A stretch of 64,000 nucleotides of DNA from the NCBI RefSeq assembly GCF_014400405.1, contig NZ_CP060496.1, positions 1,426,001-1,490,000 on the forward strand. Reading direction: 5' to 3'. Origin of the DNA: Brachybacterium sp. Z12. GTDB lineage: Bacteria; Actinomycetota; Actinomycetes; Actinomycetales; Dermabacteraceae. Positions 2,510 through 63,539 of this stretch are shown piece by piece (within the stretch, counting starts at the first letter, position 1; each line of letters begins with the position of its first letter). The translations under genes and the position numbers were made by a program. The notes below the pieces were generated by a model, which made no database searches, was not told the DNA's origin, and saw only the letters and a program-made list of their open reading frames with translations.

Positions 2510-3457
2510 TCATCGAGAGATGGTGATCCCCCGAGTTCAGAGGTCACCGTGAGGGTGCCGTTCACGGCGGTCGTGCCACCCGTGAGCGACCGATCCACAT
2601 CGACGCTCCCGAGCTCGGACTCGGCGGCCACCTCCCAGCGGGCTGACCCGGGCAGCGCGACATCGACGCTGCCGAGCTCTGCGGTGATCGCGACGTCACC
2701 GCCGGCATCCACGGGCAGCAGCAGATCGACATCCCCCACCGCGGCAGTGATGTCCACGGAGGCAGGCGCGGGCGAAGCGAGCTCGATGTCGATATTGCCC
2801 ACCTCGGACGTCGCGGTGAGCCTCTCGGTGGCGGTGAGCGGCCCGAGCACGAGGTCACCCACATCGGCGTGCACGCTGAGCGTGTCGAACTCGCCGTCGA
2901 CCATGACGTTGCCGACCTCGGCGCGCAGGTCGAGGGACAGCTCGTGGCCGACGGGGACGAGCAGCAGCAGGTCGTGGCTGGGGTTCATCCAGGGCAGCAC
3001 GGAGTATCGCTGAGGCTGGCTCACGACTGCCGTGGCGCCCTGCGAATCGGTGCCACGGGTGATGCGGGCGCGCACCGTCTCCTGCGGCGGGGGAGAGCCG
3101 TCGCGCCCGGCTCCACCAGGGCCAGGGTCACCTCGTCGACGTCCTCCGAGGGGAGCACCCGGACAGAGCCCACCTCGCTGGTCAGACTCAGCGAGGTGGG
3201 GGTGCCGAGCCCCGTGGTGGCCGACACCTCGGAGTACCCACGACCGGTCGCCCAGCTCGCCGCGGTGGCCAGGGTGAGCCCGCTGATCAGCATTAGCACG
3301 ACCGCGGAGCCCAGCAGCACCGTGAGCACCCGCCAGGGCCGGTCCCGGTCGGGTGACGGGGTCAGCTGTTGGCCGGGGAGGAACAGAGGCTGCTGCGAAG
3401 GGGGCGGCGGAGCCTGTGCGGTCTGCGCCGGGTGAGCGGGGGAGCAGTGGTCATCAT
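2510..3457 (-). CDS. DUF4097-family membrane-anchored protein (three apparent frameshifts)
   Basis: The repaired product is about 316 residues: a Pro/Gln-rich cytoplasmic N-terminus, one membrane segment (VLTVLLGSAVVLMLISGLTL), then repeated short beta strands of the type VGDVDLLLP and LGSVDVALP, characteristic of the DUF4097 beta-helix-like fold. Start is the ATG at 3457, which overlaps the response-regulator stop as ATGA. One C is missing from each of three C5 runs on the coding strand (3438-3442, 3089-3093) and one G at 2528-2532. Restoring the last gives a natural end, SELGGITISR, before a terminator; unrepaired, the frame runs through that terminator to 2404. It is the last gene of a kinase/regulator operon and is probably its envelope-sensing or output partner (inference). 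Confidence 0.7.
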
Positions 3458-4106
3458 CGTTCCTCTGATTCCAGATAGCGCAGGACTGCCATGACGCGTC
3501 GGTTCTCCCCGTCCACGGGCGGGAGGTCGAGCTTGCCGAGCAGCGAGGAGATGTGCTTCTCCACGCTGCCGGCGGAGACGAACAGGGTGTCGGCGATCGC
3601 CTGGTTCGAACGGCCCTGGGCCATCAGCGAGAGCACCTCGCGTTCACGCGGGGTGAGGCCCTCGAGGGTGCGCCGGCGACGGGAGCGGATGAAGATCTGC
3701 TGGATCACCTCGGGATCCAGCCAGGTGCCCCCGGAGCCGACATCGGCCACGACTCCCAGGAAGTCGTCGACGTCCGCGACCCGGTCCTTGAGCACGTACC
3801 CCAGCCCGGTGGGGAGTCCGCGATCAGCTCGGAGGCATAGCGCTCCTCGACGTACTGAGAGAGGACGAGCAGCGGCACCTCCGGATCCTGGTTGCGGATC
3901 AGCACAGCGGCCCGGATCCCCTCATCGGTGAAGGTGGGCGGCATCCTCACATCGATCACCGCGAGATCAGGGCGGTGCTGGGAGACCGCGCTCAGCAGTG
4001 CTGTGCCATCGCCGACGGCAGCGACCACCTCGTGGCCCGCATCGGTGAGCAGTCGTTCGAGCCCTGCGCGCAGCAGCACGGCGTCATCGGCGATCACGAT
4101 CCTCAT
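3454..4106 (-). CDS. NarL/LuxR-type response regulator (one apparent frameshift)
   Basis: The receiver domain has acidic residues D7-D8 and the phosphoacceptor D52 in VIDVRMPP. The C-terminal LuxR-type helix-turn-helix has LTPREREVLSLMAQGRSNQA and a recognition helix around SAGSVEKHI. The frame breaks at 3811-3814, where one C is missing from a coding-strand C run; restoring it gives DSPTGLGYVLKD and a 217-residue protein, the normal NarL-family size. The start overlaps the kinase stop as ATGA, and the stop overlaps the DUF4097 start the same way, so the three genes form one operon. It is presumably phosphorylated by the neighbouring kinase. Confidence 0.88.
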
Positions 4107-11917: not shown

Positions 11918-13002
11918 TCAGTCGCCCAGGCGCTGACCGTTCTTCGCATCGAAGAGGTGGGTGTGCTCCGGCGAGGGACGGAAGTACACCGTCTCGCCCT
12001 TGGCCGGAGGACGACGGGCGTCGACGCGAGCGATGAACGGCTTGGCCGTCTCGTCGCTGCCGGCGCGGCGGCCGTAGATGAACGCGTCCGCGCCCAGCTC
12101 CTCGACGAGGTCGACCTCGACGGCGAGACCCTGGTTGTCGGGGGCGAGCTCGAGATCCTCGGGACGCACACCCACGGTGACCGTGGTCTGATCGGTCTCG
12201 GAGAGGGTGGAGCGGTCCACGGGGATCACGGCGCCGCCGAACTCGACACCCTGATCGGACAGCGGGGCGTCGAACAGGTTCATCGCGGGGGAGCCGATGA
12301 AGCCGGCCACGAACACGTTGTCCGGGTGGTCGTACATGCGGCGGGGGAGTCGATCTGCTGGAGCACGCCACGATCGAGGACGGCCACGCGGTCGCCCATC
12401 GTCATCGCCTCGGTCTGGTCGTGGGTCACGTAGACGGTGGTGACGCCCAGACGACGCTGCAGAGACGCGATCTGGGTACGGGTGGAGACGCGGAGTTTCG
12501 CGTCGAGGTTCGACAGCGGCTCATCCATGAGGAACACCTGGGGCGAGCGCACGATCGCGCGGCCCATGGCCACACGCTGACGCTGACCACCGGAGAGGGC
12601 CTTCGGCTTGCGGTCGAGGTACTCGGTGAGGTCGAGGATCTCGGCGGCGTCCTCGACGCGCTTGCGGATCTCGGCCTTCGGGTTGCCCGCGATCTTCAGG
12701 GCGAAGCCCATGTTGTCGGCGACCGACATGTGGGGGTAGAGCGCGTAGTTCTGGAACACCATCGCGATGTCGCGGTCCTTCGGCGGCACATCGGTGACGT
12801 CGCGGTCACCGATGAGGATGCGGCCGGCGTCGATCTCCTCGAGGCCGGCGAGCATGCGCAGCGAGGTCGACTTGCCGCAACCGGAGGGGCCGACCAGGAC
12901 GAGGAACTCGCCGTCGCCGATCTCGATGTTGAGGTTGTCGACGGCCGGGCGCTCCTGGCCCGGGTAGACGCGCGAGGCGCTGTCGAACGTGACTGTTGCC
13001 AT
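11918..13002 (-). CDS. ugpC: Sugar ABC transporter ATPase, UgpC/MsmK type (one apparent frameshift)
   Basis: The repaired product is 361 residues, the normal size for the shared ATPase that energizes several carbohydrate importers. It has Walker [10 protein letters not shown] (about 39-47), signature [15 protein letters not shown], Walker [13 protein letters not shown] and the His-loop [10 protein letters not shown], followed by a TOBE-containing regulatory domain ([12 protein letters not shown]). The frame breaks at 12343-12347, where one C is missing from the coding strand; restoring it gives [26 protein letters not shown] precedes the ATG at 13002. No permease or binding protein is adjacent, consistent with a multitasking ATPase serving distant transporters. 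Confidence 0.9.
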
Positions 13003-13106
13003 GGTGGTTCTCCTTCACCGGCAGGTACGTGCCGGACGGTCCGTTGTGAAGTGATACGTGGCCGGGACGAGGTCGCTCTCACGGGAGGTGCTTCTTCGCA
13101 CCGGCT

Positions 13107-16900: not shown

Positions 16901-17992
16901 TGGCCGGCCCCCTCCCGTCGTCGCCCGTGCCCGCACCGCCGTACGCGCGGCGGTGACCGCGCGTCTCGAGCAGCTCGCGGACGACACCGCCGTCGGCCAT
17001 CTCTCGCCCCGCCTGCTCGTCGGCTGCAGTGGGGGAGCGGACTCCCTCGCCCTGCTCGCGACCACCGCCTGGGTCGGGTCCCGGATGGGGCTCGAGACCG
17101 AGGCGGCGATCGTCGACCACGGGCTGCAGGAATCTTCCGCACAGGTCGCCGAGCGTGCGCTCGTCCAGGCGCAGCGGCTCGGCGTCCAAACGCACGTGCT
17201 GCGCGTCGACGTCGACGCCGACGCGCCCGGCGGGATCGAGAACGCCGCCCGGATCGCACGCCACGCCGCCCTCGAGGCGGCCCTCGAGGAGCGCGGGGCG
17301 ATCGCCCTGCTGATGGCCCACACCCTCGACGACCAGGCCGAGCAGGTGCTGATGGGCCTGGCCCGCGGAGCCGGCCCCGGGCGCTGGCGGGGATCCCCCG
17401 CACCCGCGGCGCGCTGCTGCGGCCCTTCCTGGGGACCGGGAGGGACGAGAGCACCGCCCTGCGCCGCGCCGACACCGAGGAGATCTGCCGCGTGCACGAC
17501 CTGGAGTGGTGGGAGGACCCCATGAACGCGGACGAGACGCTGCTGCGCTCCCGCGTGCGCCACCGTGCGCTGCCGCTCCTACGGGAGATCCTCGGCGACC
17601 AGATCGACGAGAACCTCGCACGCACCGCGGACCTGGTGCGCCCCGACGTCGACCACCTCGACGAGGAGGCCCGGGAGCTGCTGGTCTCCCTGCGCCGGGA
17701 CGGCGGCGAGCTGCGCGAGGACGGCGACCTGCTCCTGCTGGACGTGCACGCCCTGGCCGCCGCACCGGCACCGCTGCGCACCCGGATCCTGCGCGACGCC
17801 TCACGTTCCGCTGACCGCGCAATCCGCCCCGACCGCTCCTCAGGTTCGACGAAGTCCCTGCTTCGGCGACAGGTGCTCGCGATCGATGCGCTGGTCGTCT
17901 CATGGCGCGGTCAGGCTGCCGTGCCCGTTCCGGGTAGGATCGAAGTCGCTCGCCGCGACGGCCTGTTGGTGTGGCGCCGCCTCGATCCGTGA
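16897..17992 (+). CDS. tilS: tRNA(Ile)-lysidine synthetase (two apparent frameshifts)
   Basis: The repaired product is 365 residues. It modifies the wobble cytidine of tRNA-Ile(CAU) to lysidine so that AUA is read as isoleucine. The PP-loop VGCSGGADSLALLA and the HTLDDQAEQVLMGLARG segment are diagnostic. One C is missing at 16908-16912; restoring it links the ATG at 16897 to the main frame as MMAGPPPVVARA. One G is missing at 17379-17381; restoring it gives GALAGIPRTRGALLRPFLG. The function is essential in bacteria, so these breaks are more likely sequence errors than decay. ATGA overlap with dacB; hpt follows 44 nt later. Confidence 0.9.
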
Positions 17993-18595: not shown

Positions 18596-20727
18596 GTGGC
18601 AGAATCCCCCAAGAGCTCCGGCAGCAACAAGAGCTCCGGCAGCAAGAAGCGCCGCCCGTTCTCGAGCATCGCGCTGTGGATCGTCGTCGCGCTGCTGCTG
18701 GGCATGGCCATGTTCTCGCTGTTCGGTCGCGACGGCTATCAGCAGATCGACACCCAGCAGGGTCTCGAGCTGCTCGCCGGGGACACCGTCGAGCAGGCGA
18801 AGATCACCGGCGGCAACCAGCAGCGGGTGGACCTGGTCCTCACCGAGGAGTTCGTCGACGGCGAGGAGAAGAAGGGCACCGAGGTGCGCTTCGCCTACGT
18901 CGATGCGCGAGGAGACGCGATCGTCCAGGCCGTCGAGGAGGCGGCGCCGGCCAAGGGCTACACCGACGAGATCGCCTCCAGCTCCTGGTGGTCGACGCTG
19001 CTGCTGTCCTTCCTGCCCCTGCTGATCTTCATCGGCCTGTTCTGGTTCCTGATCATGAACGCCCAGGGCGGCGGCAAGGCCATGCAGTTCGGCAAATCCA
19101 AGGCCAAGCTGTTCAACAAGGAGGCTCCGAAGGTCACCTTCGCCGACGTGGCGGGCGCCGAGGAGGCCGTCGAGGAGCTCGACGAGATCAAGCAGTTCCT
19201 GGTCGATCCGGGCCGGTACCAGGCCGTCGGCGCGAAGATCCCCAAGGGCGTGCTGCTGTACGGCCCTCCCGGCACCGGCAAGACCCTGCTGGCGAAGGCT
19301 GTCGCCGGCGAGGCGAACGTGCCCTTCTACTCCATCTCCGGCTCCGACTTCGTGGAGATGTTCGTCGGCGTCGGCGCGAGCCGCGTGCGCGACCTGTTCA
19401 ACACCGCCAAGGAGAACTCCCCGGCGATCATCTTCATCGATGAGATCGATGCCGTGGGCCGTCACCGCGGCGCCGGCATGGGCGGCGGCCACGACGAGCG
19501 CGAGCAGACCCTGAACCAGATGCTGGTGGAGATGGACGGGTTCGACGAGAACCAGAACGTCATCCTCATCGCCGCCACCAACCGGGTGGACATCCTCGAC
19601 CCTGCGCTCCTGCGCCCGGGCCGCTTCGACCGCCAGATCGCGGTCGAGGCTCCCGACCTCAAGGGCCGCCTGCACATCCTCGGCGTGCACTCCAAGGGCA
19701 AGCCGCTCGCGCACGACGTCGACCTCGAGCACGTCGCCAAGCGCACCATCGGGATGTCCGGCGCGGATCTCGCGAACGTGCTCAACGAGGCGGCGCTGCT
19801 GACCGCCCGCTCGGGCAACCAGATCATCGACAACCGGGCCCTGGACGAGGCGATCGACCGTGTGTCGATGGGCCCGCAGCGGTACTCGAAGGTGATGAGC
19901 GAGCGCGAGCGCCAGATGACGGCCTACCACGAGGGCGGCCACGCCCTGGTCGCGGCCGCCATGAACAACTCCGCGCCGGTCACCAAGGTGACGATCCTGC
20001 CGCGCGGCCGCGCCGGTGGATACACGATGGTGGTGCCCACCCAGGACCGCAACTACCAGTCCCGCAACGAGCTGCTGGACCGCCTCGCCTACGCGCTCGG
20101 CGGCTACGCCGTGGAGGAGAGCATCTTCCACGACGTCACCCCACCGGCCCCAGCTCCGACCTGCAGAACGCCACCAAGATCGCGCGCACCATGGTGATGC
20201 AGCTGGGCATGAGCGACGCCGTGGGCCAGGTCGCACTGGCCGGTGAGCAGGACGAGGTGTTCGTGGGCATGCAGCAGGCCCAGGGCCCCCGCTTCAGCGC
20301 CGAGACCGCGAGCCTCATCGACCAGGAGGTCCGCACCTTGCTGGACACCGCGCTGGATGAGGCCTGGGCGGTGATCGTGGAGAACCGCCACGTGCTGGAT
20401 CGCCTGGTGGAGGAGCTGCTCGAGCGGGAGACCCTCAACGAGCACGAGCTCGCCGAGATCTTCCGCGACGTGAAGAAGCAGCCGCCGCGCGAGGTCTGGG
20501 TCTCCAGCTCTGAGCGTCCCGCGCTGGCCGCACCCTCCGTGGGTGCGACCACGACCGGCACCGGGACCGAGTCCTCGGACGCCGGCGAGCCGCTGCAGCC
20601 GGGCGCGCCCGAGCTGCCGCACCCCGGTGGCGATGGGCCCCAGATCCCCGGCGCCCCGCACGGGGGCGGTCCGGGCGATGGCGGCACCGGCTACGGCTAC
20701 GGGAGCAGCGACGGGACGGAGCGCTGA
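18596..20727 (+). CDS. ftsH: ATP-dependent zinc metalloprotease FtsH (one apparent frameshift)
   Basis: The repaired product is 710 residues: two membrane segments (about 22-42 and 128-150) around an extracytoplasmic region, an AAA+ domain with Walker A GPPGTGKT (223-230), Walker B IIFIDEID and SRH arginines near [10 protein letters not shown], then the protease site HEGGH (445-449). One C is missing at 20139-20142; restoring it gives [20 protein letters not shown]. It degrades damaged or unassembled membrane proteins. The last 80 residues are Gly/Pro-rich and probably disordered. Start is GTG 18596, 4 nt after hpt. Confidence 0.93.
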
Positions 20728-23584: not shown

Positions 23585-23687
23585 GCCGTTCGGCCACGAG
23601 CGTGCCCGGCATCCTTCGACCTTCGGCGGATCTTCTCCCGCCCCGGGGCGGAGCGGGTCGGGGCCTGGGGATGACACGATGGTTCCC

Positions 23688-24294
23688 ATGACCTCAGCGC
23701 CCGACCCCCACGAGCCCCCGATCTCACAGTCCGCATCGCTCGACGAGGCCCCGGCGGCGGCTCCCACTGCCCCCGCGGCGCCTGCTCGCACCCTTTCCGA
23801 CGATCCCTCCGGCCGGCTCGGCGCGGACGGGCTGCGCCCGGTCTCCCCGAAGCTGATCCCCGCCCGCTACGTGGGCGGCATCGCCGGGAACGTCTTCTGG
23901 CTGCTGCTGGTCATCGCCGCGATCGTGGGCACCGTGCTGACCGGGTGGTGGTGGATCGCGGCCTGCGGCCTGCTGCCGCTGGTGCTCATCGCCCAGAGCC
24001 TGCTGCTGACCCCGCGCCGGGTACGGGCCATCGGCTACCTGGACGGCGAGGAGGACCTCACGATCGCCAGCGGCATCATGTTCCGCTCCGTCCACACGAT
24101 CCCCTACGGCCGCGTCCAGTCCGTGAAGATCGGTGAGGGCCCTGTCGAGCGGCGCTACGGGCTGGCGACCCTCACCATCACCACCGCTGCGGGGTGGCGG
24201 CACGGAGACCCTGCCCGGGCTCCCGAAGGCTGAGGCGGAGCGTCTGCGGGTCCTGCTTGCCGACCGCGGCATCGAGCTGATGGCGGCGCTGTGA
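23688..24294 (+). CDS. PH-domain (bPH_2, YdbS-type) membrane protein (one apparent frameshift)
   Basis: The repaired product is 201 residues. An Ala/Pro/Ser-rich N-terminus of about 55 residues is followed by two membrane segments (VFWLLLVIAAIVGTVLTGWW; IAACGLLPLVLIAQSLLL) and a bacterial PH-like domain (DLTIASGIMFRSVHTIPYGR). One extra G in the run at 24191-24194 breaks the frame; removing it yields ITTAAGGGTETLPGLPKAEA, and the stop then overlaps the next start as GTGA. ATG 23679 is an alternative start. YdbS/YdbT pairs are membrane proteins of unclear role; in Bacillus they have been linked to antimicrobial-peptide tolerance. Confidence 0.78.
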
Positions 24295-25951
24295 GCACGC
24301 CTCTGTCCAGCCCGTCCAGCCAGACCAGCCCTTCCAGCCCGGCCAGTCCGGCTCCCGAAGAGAGCGTGCCACCGACCACAGCGGAGCAGCCCACGGCGAC
24401 CGTACCGGACCCCTCGACCCCGCGTCGCCGCACCCACCCGATCACCCCGCTGGTGACCGGCTGGAAGCTGGTGGTGGGCGTGATCGCAGTGATCGCGGCA
24501 CAGAACATCGCGCAGCTGCTCAACGAGTTCACGCTCCAGCGCGCTCTCATCGGGGCCGGCCTGCTGCTCGCCGCAGCGATCATCGCGATCGTCTTCTCGA
24601 CCCTCAGCTGGTGGTTCACCACCTACGCGGTCGACGAGGACGGCGTCTCCCTGCACAGCGGCATGATCAGCCGCTCCCGCGAATATGCGCCTCGTGCCCG
24701 CATCGAATCGGTCTCGGTCGAACGCCCGCTGCTGGCCCGGCTGCTGGGCCTGGCGAAGGTGCGGGTCGAGGTCGCCGGAGGCGGCGAGTCCTACCTCGAC
24801 ATCGAATACGTGAAGTCCGCCGCGGCAGAGGACCTCCGCCGGGGATCCTCGGCATCGCCGAGCTCGCCGCCCCGGACACTCCGGGCGAGCCGGCCACGGA
24901 CACCGCCGCCGAGGCGATGCCTCCCTCGGAGCCCGGTGACCAGAGCGCACAGGACGCGAACGCCGCCGGTGCCGCCTCCGGGCGGCTCGAGCAGCTCCTC
25001 TCCGACGGGGTCACCGACGGCGAACTGATCGCGCACGTGCCCACCGAGCGCCTCATCCGCTCCCTGCTGCGGGACATCGGCTTCCTCATCGGCGTGGTGA
25101 TGAGCATCGTCGGCGTGGCCGTCGCCGTGGCGCTCGCGATCTGGCAGGACGGCATCAACATCGCGATGTTCATCGCCCTGGCGCCCGCCGCGATCGCCGT
25201 CCCGAAGTACATCTTCGGCCGCATCGAGTCCGGGTGGGGCTTCGTCTCCAGGATCACCGAGCGCGGCCTGCGGATGCGCCGCGGCCTGGCCAACACTCGC
25301 ACCGACAACATCGTCTCCGGGCGCATCCAGCGCATCGAGCTGCGCCGTCCGCTGCTCTGGCGCGGTCCCGGCTGGACCGCTGCCACCGCCACCGTCGCCG
25401 GGATCGACGACGACAGCGAGAACGGCGCCGAGAACGTGCTGCCCGTCGGCACCCGCGAGGAGCTGCAGGCGACGCTCGGCCACCTCGCCGTGCCGCTCGG
25501 CACCGCGGACGACACCGCCTTCATCGAGCACCTGCTCACCGCCCCGGCCCGCGAGATCGACGGATTCCGCACGCGGGTGCGGATGTACTGGATCGCCCGC
25601 CGCACCGAGGTGAGCGTGCTGCTGCCCGGCGCGCTCGTGAAGCGTGGGGGACTGCTGACCAAGCACATCGAGATCGTCCCCCGCGAACGCATCCAGCAGC
25701 TCTCCGTCGACGACGGCCCCCTGAACAGGAAGCTCGGCGTCCTGGATCTGCAGGTGGGGATCGCCGGGGAGACGGTGGCCGTGAGCAACCTGCCCCGCAG
25801 GCAGGTGCTCGACCTCCATGCCACGCTCTCGCACGATGCGGCCACGCTGCGCCGCTACCGGGACCGGCAGCACTGGCCGCAGCCCGCCCTCAGCCTCGCC
25901 GCACCAGCCGGTCAGTCGCCGGGCCCGTCACAGCCCGAGGAGCAGCGATGA
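24291..25951 (+). CDS. PH-domain (bPH_2, YdbT-type) membrane protein (one apparent frameshift)
   Basis: The repaired product is 553 residues with a Ser/Pro-rich start and several membrane segments alternating with bPH_2 domains (VDEDGVSLHSGMISRSREYA; ITERGLRMRRGLANTRTDNI; KHIEIVPRERIQQLSVDDGP). One G is missing at 24841-24844; restoring it gives EDLRRGILGIAELAAPDTPG. It is coupled to the smaller PH gene by a GTGA overlap and to the DUF2520 gene by ATGA. The two PH proteins probably form one membrane complex. Confidence 0.8.
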
Positions 25952-31071: not shown

Positions 31072-31091
31072 GGGAGGTGCTCCTTGGTGTG

Positions 31092-37213: not shown

Positions 37214-37265
37214 ACGTCCATCTCCTCCCGCTCGTTCCTTGCAGTTCGTCTACCGGCACGGATGC

Positions 37266-40207: not shown

Positions 40208-42791
<2,584 letters not shown>

Positions 42792-42960: not shown

Positions 42961-43784
42961 ATGGTCGACGTCATCGACTGGCTGCTGTCCCTGACAGGAC
43001 AGCTGGAGAGCTGGATCCTCAACTTCGCAGATGCCTGGTGGGTCCATCTCGTGGTGTACCTGTTCGCCGCCTTCGACGGCTTCTTCCCCTCGGTGCCCAG
43101 CGAGTCGACGATCGTGACGCTCTCCTCGCTGTGGTCGACCTCGAGGAGCCCCTCGATCATCCTGATCGGCCTGGCCGCCTGGCTGGGTGCGTGGACCGGT
43201 GACAACATCGGCTACCTGATCGGCAACAAGATCGGCTGGGAGCGCTTCAAGTTCCTGCGCGAAGGCCGGGGACGCCGAGCGGTCGACGCCGCAGACCGGG
43301 GCCTGCAGAAGCGGGCGCTGGTGTTCCTGATGACGGCCCGATACATCCCCTTCGGGCGGACCGCGGTCAACCTCGTCGCCGGTGCCGTCCACTACCCCCA
43401 TAGCCGTTTCTGGCCCCGCTCGCTGCTGTCCACCTTCGTGTGGGCGGTGTACTCATGCGCGATCGGCGCCCTCGCCGGGGCATGGTTCGAGCACAACCAC
43501 CTTCTCGGCATCACGGTCGCGCTGATCGCCGCCATGGTGATGGCCCTCGTGCTCGAGCGCATGATCTCGATAGGGCACCGCGCCCTGGACCGACGTGCGG
43601 AGCAGCGTGAGGCGGAGCAGGCGCTCGTGCACCAACAGGAGCAGGCCCTGCGACCGAGCAGGGAGCGGGCGAGACCGCCGCTGACGGACAGCAGCCCGGC
43701 CCCGTGGATCAGCGGCCCTCACCGGCCGCCACCGGCGGCGTCGAGTCGCCGAGCACACCTCGCGGAGAAGAGAGCCCGACATGA
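42961..43784 (+). CDS. DedA-family membrane protein (one apparent frameshift near the 3' end)
   Basis: The repaired product is 274 residues of the DedA/SNARE-associated family, probable phospholipid or undecaprenyl-phosphate flippases. Visible family features: the reentrant segment AAFDGFFPSVPSESTIV, LGAWTGDNIGYLIGNKIG and the conserved basic FLMTARYIPFGRTAVNLVAG. One G is missing around 43667-43669; restoring it gives a disordered tail ending ESPSTPRGEESPT whose stop overlaps the next start as ATGA. Unrepaired, the frame would run 145 nt into the next gene. GGAGAGG precedes the ATG. Confidence 0.85.
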
Positions 43785-45779: not shown

Positions 45780-46411
45780 CTAACCGATCACCGAGACGGC
45801 CACGGCGCTTGCGCTGAGAGCGTGAGCCAGTTCTCCCGCGTGTGCACGCGGCACAGCGACGAGGATCTCGGGCGATGCACCGGGGAGCCGCCCAGTGCGA
45901 CGCCCGAGGACTCGTGAGGGACACCCTCCACGACCTGGGCCGTGATCCCGGCCCGTGCCCCGGCAGTGGCATCCGTGGGGAACAGCTCAACCCTGCTTCC
46001 CGGTGCCAGATGGGGCAGGAGCACCTCGGACACGGGGACAGCCATCAGCGCCGTCCCCTCTGGGAGCATCGTCTCTTCATGACCGGCGAGCATGGTGGGC
46101 AGCAGCGGGGTCCCGGCCGGCAGCGGATGAGCGGTGGCCGACCCGAGCACGTCTTCGGGGGCATTCGGCGCCTCCGCGGGGACGAGCTCCTCGGCGACGC
46201 GGACGGTGCGAAGGTGCTCGGGCAGCAGCTCGGTGCCCGCCGGGAGGTCCTCGGTGACGACGAGCGCCTCGACCCCCTGGACCGAGGGCGGCAGAAGGGT
46301 GGGAAGCAGTGTCGCGGCGATGGCAGCGAGCGCGAGGGCGGCGAGGACCCGCCGGCGGCGACGCAGGGCACGGCGCCAGGCGGGCAGGTGACTGCGGAGT
46401 CGGGTGAGCAT
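45780..46411 (-). CDS. SAF-domain membrane protein, CpaB/RcpC-like (one apparent frameshift)
   Basis: The repaired product is 210 residues: a strongly basic N-terminus, one membrane segment (VLAALALAAIAATLLPTLL), then a SAF domain (EALVVTEDLPAGTELLPEHL; AHPLPAGTPLLPTML) as in CpaB pilus-assembly proteins. No Flp/Tad pilus genes are nearby. One C is missing opposite 45870-45872; restoring it gives HRPEILVAVPRAHAGELAHA and a stop at 45780-45782. The ATG at 46411 is chosen over 46456 because TAGCGT (46419-46424, minus strand) lies 7 nt upstream. Confidence 0.72.
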
Positions 46412-46985: not shown

Positions 46986-47646
46986 TCAGAAGCCCGCTGA
47001 GGTGACCAGTGAGACGAGCGCGTCGGCCGTGAGCACGGCGGGTATGGGCACGTCGTGCTCCTCGCGCACCAGCGCACCCTTCTCGAGCAGCTCGTCGGGG
47101 TGGACCACGGCGACCACCATCGCGCTCGAGGGGACCGTGGTCAGCGCGCGGTCGTAGTACCCCGCCCCGTGCCCGATGCGGGTGCGGGAACGGTCGACGG
47201 CCACAGCAGGGGTCAGCACGAGCATCGCCTCACCGAGCGCGCCGGTCCCCAGCCGCTCACCCTGCGGCTCTCTGCCGAAGCCGGCCCCGGGGAGGGATGG
47301 AAGGTGCTCGCGCCGTCCCAGGAGATCCATTCCAGCTCCTCGCCGGCAGCGGCGGGGAAGACGAGCCTGGCGCCCGCCTCCACCAGCCGGCGGGCGAGCG
47401 GCATGATGTCGGCCTCGGTGGGTGTGGGGTGATACGCCGCGACCAGGGGGCGGGTGCGCCCTGGGAGCGTGAGAAGGCCGCAGCCCTCTCGACGGCGATG
47501 ATCAGCGGGGCCGCGTGCTCGAGGAGACGCTGAGCCTCCTGGGCACGGCGCTGGGCACCTTCATCGCCGCTGTAGCGGGCGGCTCGTCGGGCTCGCAGGG
47601 TCTTGCGCAGCTCCTGCTTCCTCGCTGCGGTCATCTCCGGGTCCAT
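46986..47646 (-). CDS. 5-formyltetrahydrofolate cyclo-ligase (two apparent frameshifts)
   Basis: The repaired product is 220 residues. It converts 5-formyl-THF to 5,10-methenyl-THF using ATP. The basic N-terminal helix KQELRKTLRARRAARYS and the C-terminal signature RIGHGAGYYDRAL are diagnostic. One C is missing opposite 47446-47450 (restored: APAPLVAAYHPTPTEADIMP) and one G opposite 47285-47288 (restored: FHPSPGAGFGREPQGERLG). It is divergent from the acetyltransferase gene. Confidence 0.86.
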
Positions 47647-47745: not shown

Positions 47746-48371
47746 ATGGTTCACGTGTGGCCGCTGACACTGCGCGACGGAGAGCTGGCACTGCGTCCGC
47801 TGCGCCGGCGCGACCGTGCGGCCTTCGAAGGGTTGCGGGTGCGCAACGCCGAATGGCTGCGCCCCTGGGACGCGATCGATCCCGCGAGCGGACGCGGGAT
47901 GCCGCCCTTCCGCGCGCTGCGCCGGGGAACGAGTCGCAGGCACGTCTGGGGACCCATCTGCCGCTGGTGATCACGGTGCACGGTCGTCTGGTCGGCCAGA
48001 TCACGGCCGGCCCCATCCAGTACGGCGCCCTGCGCTCAGCGGTGCTGGGCTACTGGGTCGACCGGGAGGCCGCCGGGAGGGGAGTGGTGCCGCGCGCCGC
48101 GGCGCTGCTGATCGACCACCTCTTCGTCGAGCTCGGTCTGCACCGCATCGAGGTCACCGTGCGCCCGGAGAACGCCGCGAGCCTGCGCGTGGTCGAGAAG
48201 CTGCACCTGCGCCCCGAGGGGATGCGGCAGGCGGCGATCCACGTCGATGGTGCCTGGCGTGACCACCTCGTGTTCGCGCTCACCGCCGAGGAAGTGGCCA
48301 CGGGAGATGATGGCCGAGGAGTGCTGCGACGACTTCACAGAGAGTTTCCCGGCGACACGCCCGTGACGTGA
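47746..48371 (+). CDS. GNAT acetyltransferase, RimJ/RimL type (one apparent frameshift)
   Basis: The repaired product is 208 residues. N-terminal DGELALRPLRRRDRAAFEGL and the acetyl-CoA segment GYWVDREAAGRGVVPRAAAL fit the RimJ/L group that acetylates protein or small-molecule amines; VRPENAASLRVVEKL is the usual C-terminal strand-helix. One G is missing at 47924-47927; restoring it gives RRGNESQARLGTHLPLVI. Start from the TACTAT box 6 nt before ATG 47746. Substrate unknown. Confidence 0.82.
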
Positions 48372-48407: not shown

Positions 48408-48599
48408 GTGGAGTCGATCAATCTCGGAGCCGTCCTCTTCGGCATCCTGCTGCTGCTGTGGCTGGCGTACGCGCTGCCGCGCACCGCGAGCCGTCGTGAC
48501 GTCATGGGCCGTGCCCGTGCCGCCGACGATGCAGAGATGACCCCCAGGCGCGGGACCTCTCCGCGGCCGTCCACGCCCGCCGCCCTACCGCCGAGGTGA
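48408..48599 (+). CDS. Small membrane protein of unknown function
   Basis: 63 residues: an N-terminal hydrophobic segment (AVLFGILLLLWLAYALP), then a basic, Pro/Thr-rich tail. The GTG start is set by the TAGTGT box. It is coupled by GTGA overlap to the following membrane protein. I do not recognise the family. Confidence 0.65.
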   Translation: MESINLGAVLFGILLLLWLAYALPRTASRRDVMGRARAADDAEMTPRRGTSPRPSTPAALPPR

Positions 48600-49297
48600 A
48601 CCCGCCCATGTCCCAGGACCGCCTGCTCCTGCGCCCCGCTGACCCCACGCGTCGGCCCCGCTTCGATGCCGAGCCCGGGACCCGCATCGACCTCGTCCAG
48701 GAGCGCGCCCGCTCGCGCCGGCTGCTCCGAGTGGCGCTCGGGGTGCTGCTGGCCTCGACCGCGGCGCTCCTCGGCCTCGCCGTCGCCCAGGTCGTCAGCT
48801 GGTGGCTGCCGGGCGTCGCTCTGATCGGAGTCGCCGCCTACCTCGTGGGACTGCGGCGCATCGAGCTCGAACGTCGTGCCCGGATCACCCGCGCCGCCAC
48901 CCTCGCCCGCCAGCAGCGCGCCGAGCAGGAGACCGCCCGCCGACGGGACACCGCCTCGGACCGCCAGGTCGCCGCCACGCCGGCCGCTGCTCCCGAGACC
49001 GCCGCGCCGACCACGCAGGACGAGGCCACGCGGCTCGAGACGGGCGCCGAGCGCGCCGCCGAGCAGGTCACCCGCCCGGGGGAGTGGACCCCGCGGCCCG
49101 TGCCCCGGCCCACCTATGCACTGCGCGGCGAGGTGGACGATCTCGCCAGCCGCCACGCCGCCCACCGCCAGAGCATCATGGCCACCTCGGTGCCGCTCGA
49201 GAGCGAGCAGGTGGAAGAGCTCGAGGCCGTCGAGGAGAGCTTCGCGCCGGCACAGGATCTCCAGCTCGACGAGATCCTCGCCCGCCGCCGAGCCTGA
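48596..49297 (+). CDS. Two-span membrane protein with a long polar tail, unknown function
   Basis: 233 residues: a basic juxtamembrane region (VQERARSRRLLRVALGVLLA), two adjacent hydrophobic segments (about 42-60 and 66-86), a coiled-coil-like Arg/Gln/Ala-rich stretch and a disordered Thr/Pro-rich tail ending in an acidic segment. GTG start overlapping the preceding stop. The pair probably acts together at the membrane; no function can be named. Confidence 0.65.
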   Translation: MNPPMSQDRLLLRPADPTRRPRFDAEPGTRIDLVQERARSRRLLRVALGVLLASTAALLGLAVAQVVSWWLPGVALIGVAAYLVGLRRIELERRARITRAATLARQQRAEQETARRRDTASDRQVAATPAAAPETAAPTTQDEATRLETGAERAAEQVTRPGEWTPRPVPRPTYALRGEVDDLASRHAAHRQSIMATSVPLESEQVEELEAVEESFAPAQDLQLDEILARRRA

Positions 49298-50468: not shown

Positions 50469-50515
50469 TCTGTTTCCAGGAGAAGGTCATGGAAGCGGTC
50501 GCGGGCCGGCGGCGC

Positions 50516-50853
50516 TCACTGTGGAGCGATCGGTCGGAACCGGCCTCCCGCACCCCGCGTGAGCACCACGGCCTCGCCCGGGCCGACACTCGCCGCGGTG
50601 TCCTCCAGGTGCTCGATGACCACGGCGAGCGCGTGGCGCGCGGCAGCATCCTCGGCGTCGTGGGTGGTCGCATCGACCGCGAAGCGCAGCGCCACCCGCC
50701 CCACCCGTCGGCCGCCCACGGTCGGTGCCTCCACGTCCTGTTGCTCGACCACGTGCAGGGTGCCGAGCGCGAGCACGGCCTGCTCCATCACATCGACGGG
50801 GAGCATCCTCGGCGGAGCGCGCCGATCGGCAGGTGCATGCGATAGCTGGGCAT
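50516..50853 (-). CDS. Small conserved-looking protein of unknown function (one apparent frameshift)
   Basis: The repaired product is about 112 residues: PSYRMHLPIGALR, then DVMEQAVLALGTLHVVEQQD, VALRFAVDATTHDAEDAAAR and a C-terminal GGRFRPIAPQ. The alternating beta strands suggest a small alpha/beta domain. The frame breaks in 50808-50816, where one base is missing. Expression is supported by a TAGCCT box (50860-50865, minus strand) exactly 6 nt before the ATG at 50853, the same arrangement as many genes here. Family not recognised. Confidence 0.6.
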
Positions 50854-53117: not shown

Positions 53118-53590
53118 ATGACCGAGCAGCCCCACATGAACGTCGAGAGCTTCAACCTCGACCACCGCACCGTCGCCGCCCCGTACCTCCGCATCGCGGA
53201 CCGCAAGGAGCTCGCCGGAGGTGATGTGCTCACGAAGTTCGACGTGCGCTTCACCCAGCCCAACGTCACCCACCTCGACTCCGAGGCGGTCCACTCCCTC
53301 GAGCACATGATGGCCGAGCACATGCGCAACCATTCCGGGGACGTCCTGGACGTCTCTCCGATGGGCTGCCGCACCGGCTTCTATGTGCTGCTGGTGGGGA
53401 CCACACCGTCGAGGGCTTCGCCCCCGTCCTCGAGGCGACGCTGCGCGATCTGCTCGCTGCGAGCGAGGTGCCCGCCGCCAACGAGATCCAGTGCGGCTGG
53501 GGAGCCCACCACACCCTCGAGGGCGCGCACCGGGCTGCTCGCGAGTTCCTCGATCAGCGCGCAGCGTGGGACCAGGTCAGCGTGAGCTGA
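53118..53590 (+). CDS. luxS: S-ribosylhomocysteine lyase LuxS (one apparent frameshift)
   Basis: The repaired product is 157 residues, the normal LuxS size. It cleaves S-ribosylhomocysteine to homocysteine and the AI-2 precursor DPD. The metal-binding HSLEH (H59, H63), catalytic C84 in [10 protein letters not shown] and later [20 protein letters not shown] are present. One G is missing at 53397-53400; restoring it gives [26 protein letters not shown] precedes the ATG. No pfs (mtn) or methionine genes are adjacent. Its 3' end overlaps malQ by 14 nt. Confidence 0.93.
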
Positions 53591-55703
53591 TCCCCTCGCG
53601 CACCGCCGTCAGCAGGCGTGCGGTGCGCGCATCGGTCGCGATGTCGTCGACCGTGACCGGCGCGCCCTGCGCGTCCGCGAGCGGGATCCTCCAGTTCGGG
53701 TACTCCTCGTCGGTGCCCGGCTGGTTCTGGATCCGACGTTCTCCCACGCAGTCCACGAGCGAGACGCCCAGCAGCATCGACGGGGTGCGCGCCAGGTGTC
53801 GGTGCAGCGCGATCACCGTCTCCTCGATGTCCGCACCCGCGGACAGCAGCCCCTCGGCGCGCAGCAGGTCCAGCACCTGTTCACGGCCGGCTGCATCCGC
53901 CGCATGCTCCTGTTCGAGTTCGCGCTCGAGCAAGCCCAGCTCGTGGCGCAGAGCCACGTGGTCGCCCTGGAGGTATCCGGCGGTCGGCGGGAGGTCATGG
54001 GTGTTCACCGAGGCCATGCACAGCGTGCGGTAGTCCTCCGCGCGCAGGGGCCTGCGCTCCCCGTCGTACTCGAACCACAGGATCGAAGTGCCGAGGATCC
54101 CGCGATCGATCAGGTAGTCGCGCACCCAGGGCTCGAAGGTGCCGAGGTCCTCACCGACCGACCACCAGGGTGCCCGAGCGCTGGGCCTCCAGCACCAGGA
54201 TCCCGATCATCGCCTCGTGGTCGTAGGAGACGTAGGCGCCGTCGGCCGCCTCCTGTCCCTCGGGGATCCACCACAGCCGGAACAGGCCGAGCACGTGATC
54301 GATGCGCAGCGCGCCTGCGTGCCGCATCAGGGTGCGGAGCATGTCGCGCCAGGGCTTGTAGGAGGCGTCGCGCAGGCGCTCCGGGTGCCATGGCGGCTGA
54401 TGCCAGTTCTGTCCCTGCTGGTTGTACTGATCGGCGGGGGCGCCGACGGCCACGCCGTCGGCGAGCACATCGCGCAGTCGCCAGGAATCCGCGCCGATCT
54501 GTTCGACGCCGACGGCGAGGTCGTGCATGATCCCGATCCGCATCCCGGCGTCCCGGGCCGCGGACTGCGCCGCGCCCATCTGCTCGTCCAGCAGCCACTG
54601 CACGCGGAGGTGGAACTCGATCCGGTCGGCCAGCTCGCGGCGGGCCTGTGCGAGCGTGGCCTCGTCGAGGTTCTGCAGGCAGGCCTCGTCGGCAGTTCCG
54701 TGCACGCTCTCGGCGATCGCGGACCACAGCGCGAAGTCCTCGAGCCCCCGACCCTCACGCGCGCGGTAGGCGTCCAGCAGGGCGCGACGGCCCGCGGTCA
54801 GCGGCACGGCGAGGATCTCCTCGAGGGCCTCGAGCTTCGCGGAGAGGACCTCATCGCGTTCGAGGCGGTCGACGCGGGAGTTCCAGCCGCGCACCCCTCG
54901 CGCAGCAGCTCCACGCGCTGGCGAGCGAAGCTGGGCAGCTCCCGGTACTCCGGGATGTCCTCGATGCGCAGGTAGAGCGCGCTGGTGAAGCGGCGGGTCA
55001 CCGGCAGGTAGGGGGAGGGCTCGACCGGAGCGGTCGGGTACGAGGCGTGCAGCGGGTTGATCAGCAGGAAATCCGCGCCATGGCGGGCGCCGCTGATGGC
55101 GGCGAGATCCCGCAGGTCGGCGAGATCGCCGATGCCCCAAGAGCGCTCCGAGCGCACCGAGTACATCTGTGCCTGCAGCCCGAAGGCGCGGCGCGAGGCG
55201 AAGTCCTCATGGACGGTGAGCCGGGCGGGGGTGACCACGAGATCGGCCTCGGAGCAGCCCTGCTCGGTCTCGGCGACCAGCCGATGCCAGCCCAGCGGGA
55301 GCCCTGCCGGGAGGTGGAAGCGGGCACGGCCGCGCAGCGTCCCGTCGAGGTCGAAGGGCGGCGTGTGGTCCTCGGCCTGCTCCAGATCGCGCCGATCGCC
55401 GTCCTCGAAACGCAGATGCACCTGCACGGAGGCACCGTCATCGACATGGACGGGAATGGTCGAGGCGCGGTCCTCTCGCAGCACGGTCACAGGAGGGAGC
55501 GTGCGGGTCCATGGCTCACGCTCGCGGGCGGCGCGGACAGCGGCGACGTCCTGCTCGGAGCGCACTTCCGCGCCGAGCGCGCCGAGGATCGCGTGCAGGG
55601 TGGCGTCGGCGACATCCTTCTGGGTGCCGTCCCACCCCCAATACTGGGTGCTGACGCCGAGGTCGCGGGCGAGATCTCGCAGCATTGAGGAATCTGAGGC
55701 CAT
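53577..55703 (-). CDS. malQ: 4-alpha-glucanotransferase (amylomaltase; two disrupted sites)
   Basis: The repaired product is 707 residues of GH77, as for actinobacterial MalQ with its extra N-terminal domain. Catalytic-region segments include [54 protein letters not shown] (nucleophile Asp) and LVVGEDLG (acid/base Glu). One G is missing opposite 54894-54897. At 54153-54160 the sequence ACCGACCG is a 4-bp tandem duplication; removing one copy restores [20 protein letters not shown]. It disproportionates maltodextrins. TACGAT lies 6 nt before the ATG. Confidence 0.9.
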
Positions 55704-55814: not shown

Positions 55815-57415
55815 TCAGGTCCAGGAGGGCAGCCACATCCGGTAGCTCCACTGCTCCACATCGATCACCTGGCCCGTCCAGACCGGCCAGAAGAACGCCG
55901 AGACCAGGATGATCAGCACCAGCAGGGAGCCGACGAACAGCCCGCCCGCCAGGCGCCGGTCACGGTCGCCGCCCGCTGGACCGATCACCAGCGCCATCAC
56001 ATAGGCCAGGCACAGGATCAGCCAGGGGGCGAAGGCCACCGTGTAGAAGGTGAAGATCGTCCGGTCCGTGTACAGCAGCCACGGCACGTACCCGGCGATC
56101 AGGCCTGACAGCGCCGCCCAGGCACGACCGTCCCGGCGCAGCACCGCGAGTACCACGGTCACCACGACGGCGAGGGTCCCCAGCCACCAGATCAGGGGTT
56201 CCCCACCGAGAGGATGTGCGCCCCGCACTTGGCGACCTCGCAGCCCTGCTCACCGTATTCGTAGGAGCGGTAGTAGAAGTTCGTGGGCCTCAGCTGCAGC
56301 AGCCACCCCGCCGGATGCGCCTCGTAGGGATGCTCGGAATCGAGACCGACGTGGAAGCTGTAGGCCTGGACGTGGTACAGCCACAACGAGTGCAGCGAGT
56401 CAAGCAGCCCGTTCCCGGTCCCCAGGCCCTTCTCCGCGGCGACGTGACGGTTGTAGCCGGTGTCGCTCGCGAACCAGCCGGCGAACGAGACCACGTAGGT
56501 GACCAGGGCAGTGCCGACGATCGCGAAGAAGGCGGGGATCGCATCCCGCACGAGCCCCCGAGCAGCCAGTCGCGCTGTGCGGCCGTGTGGCGCGCCCACC
56601 AGTCCCACAGCACCGTCATGATCCCGAAGACCGCCACGAAGTACAGCCCGGACCACTTCACCGAGCACGCCATGCCCAGCAGCAGCCCCGCCAGCAGCCG
56701 CCACGGGCGCAAGCCGCCGGAGGCGCCGAGCGCAGGAGCGGCCTCTGCACTCATGTGCATCCGCGCAGCGGCCAGCGCGAGCCGTTCACGAAAACGGTCG
56801 CGATCGATCAGCAGCGCCCCGAAGGCGGCCAGGGCGAAGAACATCAGGAACGGATCCAGCAGGCTGGTGCGGGAGTGGACCAGGGTCACCCCGTCGACCG
56901 CGAGCAGCAACCCGGCGATCAGCCCTGCGGTGGTCGAGCGGAACAGCCTGCGCCCGATCCGTGCGAGCAGCAGCACCGCCAGCGAGCCGAGCAGCGCTGA
57001 GGAGAGCCGCCAGCCCCAGGGGCTGTCCGCCCCCAGCAGCGTCATCCCGCCGCCGATCAGCCATTTGCCGAGCGGAGGATGGACCACATACGCACCGTCC
57101 GCCTCGTAGGAGTCGATGTCCCCGGCCTCGAACGCCGCGTCCGGCTCCTCGGGCCAGGGACATCTCCACGCCCTCCTGCGTGATGGCGTAGCCGTCCTTG
57201 ACGTAGTAGGTCTCGTCGAAGATCAGCTCCTCGATCGCGCCCAGGCCCCACAGCCGCAGCACCAGTGCGAGCCCGAGCAGCGCCATCGCCCCTGCCCACG
57301 CTGCTCGCGAGGCAGGAAGATCGAAGGTCTTCAGCCGCCGCCGGTAGGAGGCGCGAAGCGCGCCCGGCTCGTCCTTGACGGCGGCGCGGTGGGTCGCTTC
57401 CTCCTCCGTGTGCAC
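55815..57415 (-). CDS. Dolichyl-phosphate-mannose--protein mannosyltransferase-type GT39 (three apparent frameshifts)
   Basis: The repaired product is 533 residues with about ten membrane segments. It transfers mannose from polyprenyl-phosphate-mannose to exported proteins. The family signature is IFDETYYVKDGY in the first extracellular loop (catalytic acidic residue), with HPPLGKWLIGGGM, HAGW-like YEAHPAGWLLQLRPTNFYYR and SVGNPLIWWLGTL later. The run at 57151-57153 is one base too long; one G is missing opposite 56555-56559 and one C opposite 56195-56198. I chose GTG 57415 because TAGCAT lies exactly 6 nt upstream; GTG 57421 is the alternative. Confidence 0.88.
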
Positions 57416-60791: not shown

Positions 60792-61715
60792 CCTCGGCAC
60801 TGCAGCGCGTGGTGGTGCGCGCCCCGGGCAAGATCAACCTCTCGCTGATGGTCGGCGCCGTCGACTCCCGCGGCTACCACTCGCTGGCCACGGTGTTCCA
60901 GGCAGTGGACCTCTACGAGACCGTCACCGCGACCCGCGCCGACGACCTCAGCCTGCAGGTGACCTCCGATGTCCCCGGTGAGCTCCCGCTGGACGGCAGC
61001 AACCTCGTGCTGAGGGCGGCAGAGCTGCTGCGTGAGGAGTGCGATCTGCGCCTCGGTGCCGCGCTCCACGTCCACAAGCAGGTGCCGATCGCGGGAGGCA
61101 TGGGCGGCGGCTCGGCCGACGCCGCAGCGACCCTCGTCGCTCTCGACCGGCTGTGGGGGGACCGGACTGGACGCCGAACGCCTGCGCGAGCTCGGCGCAC
61201 GGCTCGGAGCTGACGTCCCCTTCGCGATGCTCGGCCACACCGCGCTCGGCAGCGGCAACGGCACGGACCTCACCACGGTGCTCACCCACGGGGAGTGGAC
61301 CTGGCTGCTCGCCGTCCCCGGCGGACACCTCTCCACCCCCGAGGTCTTCCGCCGGTTCGACGAGATCTCGCTCGCCTCCGGTCGGCCGCTGGCCGAACAT
61401 CCGGTGCTCGACGAGCGTCAGCTCCAGGCCCTCAGCGGCGGCAACATCGAGCTGCTCGCGGACACCCTCCACAACGATCTGCAGATCGCCGCCTTCGAGC
61501 TGCACCCGGGACTGGAGCCCGTCGTGGAGGCCGCCGAGCTCCTCGGCGCACAGGCCGCTCTGGTCAGCGGCTCCGGTCCGACGGTGGCGGTGCTGGTCGA
61601 GGACGAGGCGCAGGCCCGATCGATCGCCGCAGGCCTGATGCGCGACTCCCTGGTCCAGACGTGCCTGGTGGCGCGGGGCTCCGCGCCGGGTGCGAGCGTG
61701 CTCGAGGAGAGCTGA
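60788..61715 (+). CDS. ispE: 4-diphosphocytidyl-2-C-methyl-D-erythritol kinase (one apparent frameshift)
   Basis: The repaired product is 308 residues of the GHMP kinase family, in the MEP isoprenoid pathway. It has VRAPGKINLSLMVGAVDSRG, the ATP loop PIAGGMGGGSADAAATLVAL and the C-terminal VSGSGPTVAVLVED. The G run at 61155-61160 is one too long; removing a base gives DRLWGTGLDAERLRELGARL. The pathway is normally indispensable in Actinobacteria, so the break is probably not real. Last gene of the tatD-rsmA-ispE operon. Confidence 0.92.
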
Positions 61716-61728
61716 GCGGGCGCCGCCG

Positions 61729-63539
61729 TCAGCCGAGGAGCTCGGACAGCTCCAACCACCGCTCCTCGAGCTCCTCGATCTCAGCGTCGATCGTTCGGAG
61801 CCGCTCGGTGATCTTCTGCAGCCCCACGAAATCGGACTGATCATGCGCTGCGAGCTCTGCATGCAGCGAAGTCTTCTGCTTCTCCAGCTTCTGCACCCGG
61901 CGCTCGGCCGCACCGAGCTCCTTCTGCGCCGCATGCGAGTCCGCGCCCGAGAGCGATGAAGCAGGGGCTGTCGAGGCCGAGGCCGCCGAGCCCGCGCCAG
62001 CAGTGCGAACTCCCTCTGATCCGCCAGCTCCCTGTGTGCTCTCCGCGCGTAGCGCGAGGTACTGCTCGACCCCGCCCGGCACGTGCCGTACAGCCCCGTC
62101 CAGCACCGCGTACTGGGTGTCGGTGACACGCTCCAGCAGATACCGGTCGTGGGAGACCACGATCAGGGGACCGGGCCACGTGTCCAGGAGATCCTCCATC
62201 GCCGCGAGCATGTCGGTGTCCATGTCGTTCGTCGGCTCGTCGAGCACCAGCACATTGGGCTCCTCGAGCAACGTGAACAGCAGGTTCAATCGACGCTGCT
62301 GGCCGCCGGAGAGGGCCCCCACCTTCACCTTCTGATGCGCGGTGGTGAAGCCCAGACGCTCCAGCAGCTGCCCGGGGAGACTTCGTCCTTACCCGCGCGG
62401 AACGTGGTGCGGTAGCGCGCCACCACATCGCTGATGCGGGAATCCAGATGCTCCTCCAGGCCCTCCAGGCGCTGGGACACCTCCCGGACCGTCACGGTCT
62501 TGCCGCGCTTGACTCGTCCGGACTGCGGCTCGAGCTTCCCGGTGATCAGAGCGAGCAGCGTCGACTTCCCGGCACCGTTGGGTCCGAGCACGCCGATGCG
62601 GTCCGCCGGCCCGATGTGGAGAGTCACGTCGCGCAGCACGGTGAGGTCGCCGTAGCCGGCATCGACGTCGAGAATGTCGAGCACATCGCGACCCAGCCGC
62701 GAGGTGGCCAGCTGCGTCAGCTCGACGGTGTTGCGCACCGGCGGCTCCTCAGCGATCAGCTCGGTGGCGGCATCGATGCGGAACTTCGGCTTCGCGGTCC
62801 TGGCGGGAGCGCCGCGCCGCAGCCAGGCCAGCTCCTTGCGCATCAGGTTCTGGCGCTTCGACTCGATCGTCGCCGCTTGCCGGTCACGCTCGACCCGCTG
62901 CAGCACGTACGCTGCGTAGCCGCCCTCGAAAGGATCGACGACTCCGTCATGGACCTCCCACATCCGGGTACATACAGCGTCGAGGAACCAGCGGTCGTGG
63001 GTGATCACCACGAGCCCGCCATCCTTCGGGCTCCAGCGGCGACGCAGGTGCTCCGCGAGCCAGGCGATGCCCTCGACGTCCAGGTGGTTTGTCGGCTCAT
63101 CCAGCAGCAGCACATCCCAGTCGCCCACCAGCAGCTCCGCGAGATGGACGCGTCGCAGCTGCCCGCCGGAGAGGCCGTCGAGCGGCGCGTCCAGAGAGAT
63201 GCCCTCGAGCAGACCGGCGAGCACGTCGCGGATCCGTGGATCGGAGGCCCACTCGAACTCGGGCCGGTCGCCGAGCACCCGCTGCTGCACAGTGGTGCTC
63301 GCGGTGGCCTCATCCTGCTGGTCCAGCACGCCGACCCGGATCCCGCCACGCACGGTGACCCGGCCCTCATCCGGCTCCCGGGTGCGGGCGAGCAGGTTCA
63401 GGAGCGTGGACTTCCCGTCGCCGTTGCGTCCCACCACCCCGATGCGGTCGCCCTCGTCGATGCCGACGGTGATGTCGTCCAGGAGCACGCGGTCGGGCAG
63501 TGCGACGTGCAGGGACTGGGTGCCTAGCAGATGGGCCAT
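61729..63539 (-). CDS. ABC-F family ATPase (one apparent frameshift)
   Basis: The repaired product is 603 residues with two ABC domains and no membrane segment, the layout of ribosome-associated ABC-F proteins (Uup type). Domain 1 has GRNGDGKST, LSGGQLRRVHLAELL and LLLDEPTNHLD; domain 2 has GPNGAGKST, LSGGQQRRLNLL and LVLDEPTNDMD. A C-terminal coiled-coil (LQKITERLRTIDAEIEELEE) matches Uup-type DNA- or RNA-binding tails. One G is missing opposite 62371-62377; restoring it gives VSPGQLLERLGFTTAHQKVK. It converges with ispE, 13 nt apart. Confidence 0.9.

What the first reader, a model, noticed from the sequence alone, without database searches (positions are those of the whole stretch)
2510..63539. 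About 35 frame breaks in 25 genes, almost all one-base changes in G/C runs
Seen directly: broken genes include tilS (2 sites), clpC (2), ftsH, ispE, malQ (2), the mannosyltransferase (3), lutA, lutB, mqo, luxS and others. About 27 sites look like one lost base and 6 like one gained base, nearly all within runs of G or C. Correcting them makes every gene a whole number of codons, of family-typical length, and restores conserved motifs or 4-base overlaps. Essential genes are hit as often as dispensable ones. I infer homopolymer-length errors in the sequence, not decay. Automatic annotation would wrongly split or call these pseudogenes.
Basis: partly seen in the sequence, partly recalled or inferred. 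Interest (0 to 1): 0.75.

Follow-up and report, generated by a model that had tools for sequence, protein, structure and literature searches.

The report
Sequencing run-length errors, not broken genes
Almost half of the comparable genes in this stretch of a Brachybacterium genome look broken, but the breaks are very probably counting errors in runs of G or C made when the genome was read and assembled, an ordinary and well-known artefact that would mislead automatic annotation.

Summary
Proteins of four Brachybacterium relatives, aligned to the window with frame switches allowed, show 31 accepted break sites in 24 of 57 alignable genes: 23 of type -1, six +1, one +2, one -2. 26 of 31 lie within 6 bases of a G/C run of 4 or more (13.7% of random coding positions do). 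The same code finds one majority-supported break in 258.6 kb of relatives, against 29 in 55.1 kb of the window.

Breaks recur elsewhere in the genome (52 in 70 kb, one reference genome) and split the replicative polymerase gene. Broken genes follow length (24 seen, 22.7 expected). There is one in-frame stop in 18,144 aligned codons and no significant loss of constraint. Two G/C runs of 23S rRNA are short. Runs of 5 and 6 are rarer than in relatives, with strong context dependence. This matches the known residue of unpolished long-read assembly; platform and public name remain unknown and no reads were available. Corrections: one tilS break found, not two; one gain is a four-base tandem unit; two of 31 sites are weak.

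The parts
2530..3434 (-). DUF4097-type protein, one -1 break near 3091 beside a G/C run of 5
   Evidence: 4 of 4 references
3457..4106 (-). NarL-type response regulator (below curated cut-offs), one -1 break near 3808
   Evidence: 4 of 4 references
11921..13002 (-). UgpC/MalK-type sugar ABC ATPase (msiK leader RNA at 13004-13062), one -1 break near 12347
   Evidence: 4 of 4 references
16908..17986 (+). tilS, one -1 break near 17380
   Evidence: 4 of 4 references
18596..20724 (+). ftsH, one +2 break near 20145
   Evidence: 4 of 4 references
23679..24291 (+). bPH_2-domain protein, one +1 break near 24193, close to the gene's end
   Evidence: 4 of 4 references
24351..25942 (+). bPH_2-domain protein, one -1 break near 24844
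   Evidence: 4 of 4 references
25948..26851 (+). Rossmann-like/DUF2520 protein, one +1 break near 26431 at a G run read as 6
   Evidence: 4 of 4 references
33925..34888 (-). aldose-1-epimerase type protein, -1 breaks near 34651 (4 of 4 references) and 34839 (weak, 2 of 4)
35697..37192 (-). lutB-type iron-sulfur protein, one -1 break near 36708
   Evidence: 4 of 4 references
   Evidence: 4 of 4 references
38133..39611 (-). mqo, -1 break near 39083 and -2 break near 38313
   Evidence: 4 of 4 references
40208..42788 (+).
   Evidence: 4 of 4 references
42961..43775 (+). VTT-domain protein, one -1 break near 43623 (weak: placed differently by the 4 references, in a poorly conserved tail)
45786..46411 (-). 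SAF-domain protein, one -1 break near 45882
   Evidence: 4 of 4 references
46995..47646 (-). 5-formyltetrahydrofolate cyclo-ligase, breaks near 47283 (-1) and 47450 (-1 by two references, +2 by two; same frame change)
47746..48368 (+). GNAT acetyltransferase, one -1 break near 47927
   Evidence: 4 of 4 references
48408..49294 (+). SepX/GlpR-like protein (below the curated cut-off), one -1 break near 48542
   Evidence: 4 of 4 references
50495..50853 (-). short protein without a family match, one -1 break near 50795
   Evidence: (2 references, one just under the score filter)
53118..53581 (+). luxS, one -1 break near 53395
   Evidence: 4 of 4 references
53589..55703 (-). malQ, -1 break near 54896 and +1 break near 54156 (a four-base tandem unit, not a homopolymer)
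   Evidence: 4 of 4 references
55818..57409 (-). protein O-mannosyltransferase, breaks near 56193 (-1), 56552 (-1) and 57154 (+1)
   Evidence: 4 of 4 references
60809..61709 (+).
   Evidence: 2 of 2 references
61732..63539 (-). ATPase with two ABC domains and an ABC_tran_CTD domain (ABC-F type, label recalled), one -1 break near 62377
   Evidence: 2 of 2 references

Best explanation
The frame breaks are consensus errors of the assembly. The sequencing read-out mis-counts the length of G or C runs, mostly one base too few, and the finished sequence was not corrected with accurate reads. The living organism very probably has intact genes. Shown: break positions, their link to runs, their recurrence elsewhere in the genome, the open state of the same genes in relatives, and a shortage of longer runs in certain contexts. 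Inferred: that reads of this strain would show the longer runs, and that the source was a long-read-only assembly.
For: 31 sites in 24 of 57 genes, 26 of 31 beside G/C runs of 4 or more. One majority-supported break in 258.6 kb of relatives against 29 in 55.1 kb of the window. 52 breaks in 70 kb of five other stretches, 32 of 62 aligned genes broken, judged by one reference genome. Break rate by run length as read: 7 of 3637 (length 3), 45 of 994 (4), 17 of 197 (5). The replicative polymerase model matches in one piece in four of four relatives and in four pieces here; a second locus of that model is likewise in four pieces here. Two loci met by the valS model are in one open frame in four of four relatives and in two or three frames here, though no genome reaches that model's cut-off. 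Broken genes follow length: 24 seen, 22.7 expected. One in-frame stop in 18,144 aligned codons; identity 0.84 before and 0.85 after the first break. Runs of five and six per kb: 1.68 and 0.026 here, 2.37 and 0.131 in relatives. Two G/C runs of 23S rRNA are one base short in all three copies, where 13 of 13 copies of five relatives have the base. Completeness is 85.7% for a single contig, while the eight genus relatives held in 110 contigs or fewer are at 99-100%.
Against: rpoB is whole. 16S rRNA has no indels in three copies; it holds 14 G/C runs of 4 or more per copy, so about 0.8 would be expected per copy at the rates (my arithmetic), and repeat copies may have been polished with pooled reads. 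Of six private 23S indel columns, two are gains and two are losses of A in one copy; relatives have 1, 2, 1, 0 and 4 private columns of their own. Sites are not perfectly even along the window (KS p = 0.026). Flank-matched runs in the window are mostly unchanged: 175 of 177 of length 3, 29 of 29 of length 4, 10 of 11 of length 5, so errors hit a minority. Runs of 7 or more are commoner here than in relatives (0.017 vs 0.003 per kb). The relatives have somewhat higher GC (71.6-73.5% vs 70.0%), which may explain part of the run shortage. One gain (54156) is a tandem unit.
Confidence: 0.97

Rival explanations
1. Real gene decay (pseudogenes) in a lineage undergoing genome reduction.
For: The frame breaks are present in the deposited letters. 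Broken genes have a slightly higher ratio of divergence at codon positions 1+2 to position 3 (0.28 vs 0.24), not significant (p = 0.17).
Against: One in-frame stop in 18,144 aligned codons and equal identity before and after breaks. Genome size 3.51 Mb lies within the genus range of 2.6-4.6 Mb. The replicative polymerase is split. Broken genes follow length.
Confidence: 0.01
2. A mutator lineage with real run-length slippage that has just swept through the genome.
For: Slippage also favours homopolymers, and very recent changes would leave no stops or relaxed constraint (established knowledge and inference).
Against: About 0.5-0.7 breaks per kb, the replicative polymerase among them, should not be compatible with life (inference). 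Dependence on the two bases before a run is more naturally a signal-reading effect (inference).
Confidence: 0.01
3. Programmed frameshifting or transcriptional slippage at G/C runs restores the proteins in the cell.
Against: The relatives carry the same genes in one open frame, so the sites are not conserved; +1 and -1 changes and a tandem unit are mixed; 24 of 57 genes are hit in proportion to length; 23S rRNA runs are short as well.
Confidence: 0.005

Closest known systems
Residual homopolymer indels of nanopore assemblies (Homopolish, PMC8011154; passages seen)
   Same: Systematic errors are mainly indels in homopolymers that shift reading frames; the paper reports 151-5298 pseudogenes in R9.4 genomes from the Racon-Medaka pipeline.
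   Different: There the platform is known and truth genomes are available; here neither.
Gene-fragmenting errors of long-read assemblies (Kastor, PMC12007338; passages seen)
   Same: Deletions are most frequent after runs of four to five; 23.3% pseudogenes before correction of errors covering less than 0.05% of the genome.
   Different: In that 59% GC Pseudomonas assembly most errors followed A/T runs; here 26 of 31 sites are at G/C runs, in a 70% GC window with about 0.13 A/T runs of 4 or more per kb.
One-base-short G/C runs in assemblies of a high-GC actinobacterium (PMC11649196; passages seen)
   Same: Assemblies differed within G/C homopolymers of 4-10 bp, one base shorter in the PacBio-derived version.
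   Different: 3 to 8 differences per genome there; here an extrapolated 1,600-2,300 breaks (inference).

Membership tests
Homopolymer-length errors of an unpolished long-read assembly | Indels concentrated in homopolymer runs | tested here: met
   26 of 31 sites within 6 bases of a G/C run of 4 or more, background 13.7%; rate rises with run length
Homopolymer-length errors of an unpolished long-read assembly | Same genes intact in relatives | tested here: met
Homopolymer-length errors of an unpolished long-read assembly | Genome-wide, including indispensable genes | tested here: met
   (of 20 fetched stretches, 10 were given references and 5 of those matched); but rpoB is whole
Homopolymer-length errors of an unpolished long-read assembly | Non-coding sequence affected too | tested here: inconclusive
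   23S rRNA: 6 private indel columns, two of them a G/C-run base missing in all three copies, against 1, 2, 1, 0, 4 columns in relatives; 16S none
Homopolymer-length errors of an unpolished long-read assembly | Accurate reads disagree with the assembly | not testable with these tools
   no reads available
Pseudogene decay | In-frame stops and relaxed constraint in broken genes | tested here: not met
   1 stop in 18,144 codons; identity 0.84 before and 0.85 after the first break, n = 22, p = 0.73
Pseudogene decay | Indispensable genes spared | tested here: not met
   replicative polymerase split; tilS and ftsH broken
Programmed frameshifting | Site conserved among relatives | tested here: not met
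   the references covering each site carry one open frame

The most novel reading that the evidence does not exclude
The run shortening is strongly context-dependent: the ratio of five-C to four-C runs after CT is 2.8 times lower than in relatives, and low after AA and TT, while after GG, GT, AG, TG or CG it is not lower. If part of this reflects a base modification in the native DNA that misleads the base caller, the error pattern would be a faint trace of this strain's methylome.
Probability: 0.07. Interest if true: 0.3.

Novelty: not a real feature. Interest (0 to 1): 0.1.

Why it matters
As biology it does not matter: the genes are very probably intact. As a caution it does: an extrapolated 1,600 to 2,300 false frame breaks in this genome (inference: 0.53-0.74 per kb, times 3.51 Mb at the relatives' coding share of about 0.88) would yield false pseudogenes and false gene losses, and may explain the low completeness of 85.7%. 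Any loss-of-function claim from this genome needs accurate reads first.

Tried and rejected
A run comparison that demanded 9 identical bases on each side was too strict at about 80% identity and gave few sites; it is kept as a result against wholesale run shortening. The 23S alignments mixed strands and were replaced; only the 16S part and the run counts are used. One search ended with an error after printing its rRNA result; its run spectra were redone. The one genome-contig scan used a frame antisense to lutB as query; its best hits still name the genus. Gene decay, a mutator sweep and programmed frameshifting were considered and rejected (see rivals). The CT effect is not seen among runs read as five (2 of 24 against 15 of 173). 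Rows dropped before counts: alignments scoring under 300, and two one-reference clusters (35648, 60780); 72 of 288 reference proteins did not match the window.

Full report
Source. The window lies at 1,426,001-1,490,000 of a one-contig genome of 3,511,914 bases, rated 85.7% complete with 0.37% contamination. The best named hits of a window query are Brachybacterium, and two of the unnamed relatives equal named records in contig length (3,410,111 for strain SGAir0954; 906,390 for B. paraconglomeratum KCTC 9916). The genome's own public name was not found. The genus is not on the control lists as far as I recall.

Observation. I called genes in four syntenic relatives, 77-82% identical to the window in DNA, and aligned their proteins to the window with frame switches allowed (216 of 288 proteins matched). 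Among alignments scoring 300 or more the breaks form 33 clusters; dropping two one-reference clusters leaves 31 sites in 24 of 57 genes. 23 are -1, six +1, one +2 and one -2. Differences: tilS shows one site in four of four references, not two; mqo shows two sites, of which 38313 looks like two single losses; 54156 is a four-base tandem unit. Sites 34839 and 43623 are weak.

More than chance. The same code applied to the relatives against each other finds one majority-supported cluster in 258,628 covered bases, eight at any support; the window with three reference sets has 29 in 55,144, 33 at any support. 26 of 31 sites are within 6 bases of a G/C run of 4 or more, against 13.7% of random coding positions.

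Elsewhere in the genome. I fetched 20 stretches of 20 kb at even steps and reference stretches of one relative for ten of these places. Five of the ten had matching proteins: 52 breaks in 70,047 covered bases, 32 of 62 aligned genes broken, no in-frame stops. These rest on one reference each. The model of the replicative polymerase matches in one piece in four of four relatives and in four pieces here; a second, weaker locus of that model behaves likewise. The valS model meets two loci that are each in one open frame in four of four relatives but in two or three frames here; no genome reaches that model's cut-off, so these are valS-type loci only. rpoB is whole.

Against decay. Broken genes number 24, with 22.7 expected if breaks fall by length. 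Identity to relatives does not differ between broken and intact genes (medians 0.85 and 0.87, p = 0.17), nor between the parts before and after the first break (0.84 and 0.85, n = 22, p = 0.73). The ratio of divergence at codon positions 1+2 to position 3 is 0.28 in broken and 0.24 in intact genes (p = 0.17). There is one in-frame stop in 18,144 aligned codons.

Independent of reading frame. In 464 kb of this genome runs of five G or C occur at 1.68 per kb and runs of six at 0.026, against 2.37 and 0.131 in 708 kb of relatives; runs of seven or more go the other way, 0.017 against 0.003. The relatives have a somewhat higher GC (71.6-73.5% against 70.0%), so part of the shortage may be composition. 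Of five coding runs read as six, four sit at break sites (two +1, one +2, one -2). In 23S rRNA, two columns in G/C runs are empty in all three copies here and filled in 13 of 13 copies of five relatives; four further private columns are two gains and two losses of A; relatives have 1, 2, 1, 0 and 4 private columns. 16S shows no indel.

Context. Runs read as four C and preceded by CT carry a break in 20 of 108 cases, other runs of four in 25 of 886; among runs read as five there is no such effect (2 of 24, 15 of 173). In the run spectra, the ratio of five-C to four-C runs is low after CT (0.18 here, 0.52 in relatives; odds ratio 0.36, p = 4e-14), after AA (0.29) and TT (0.48), weakly after CA (0.73, p = 0.02) and perhaps AT (0.65, p = 0.07), and not after GA, TA, CG, TG, AG, GG or GT. 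The CT ratio varies among the relatives from 0.36 to 0.56, all above the 0.18 here. I read this as a signal-context effect in base calling; a base modification is possible but less likely because several contexts are involved.

Literature. Passages seen describe the same artefact: frame-shifting homopolymer indels in long-read assemblies, large false pseudogene counts, and one-base-short G/C runs in a high-GC actinobacterium. Passages of PMC6591954 show that consensus errors of nanopore base callers include homopolymer errors and errors at methylated motifs. [quoted passage not shown]

Results against the reading, told together: rpoB whole; 16S clean; sites not perfectly even along the window (p = 0.026); 175 of 177 flank-matched runs of three, 29 of 29 of four and 10 of 11 of five unchanged; more runs of seven or longer than in relatives. 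None of these favours a biological cause.

Verdict. Interest is low.

Noticed in passing
30163-33793: A sugar-type ABC transporter cassette (periplasmic binding protein, permease, ATPase) stands where the syntenic stretches of the four relatives are shorter and lack it; its three main frames are open.
   Followed up: partly
13004-13062: An msiK leader RNA (Rfam RF01747) sits just upstream of the sugar ABC ATPase gene.
   Followed up: no
window and 20 other stretches of the genome (L111-L130): Runs of five C after CT, AA or TT are scarce relative to relatives, while those after GG, GT, AG, TG or CG are not: a context fingerprint of the read-out.
   Followed up: partly
35721-37679: A long open frame lies antisense to lutB, and its product finds matches among relatives and other actinobacteria; antisense frames in GC-rich genomes can mislead protein searches.
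   Followed up: no
window and L111-L130: Runs of seven or more G or C are commoner than in relatives although runs of five and six are rarer.
   Followed up: no
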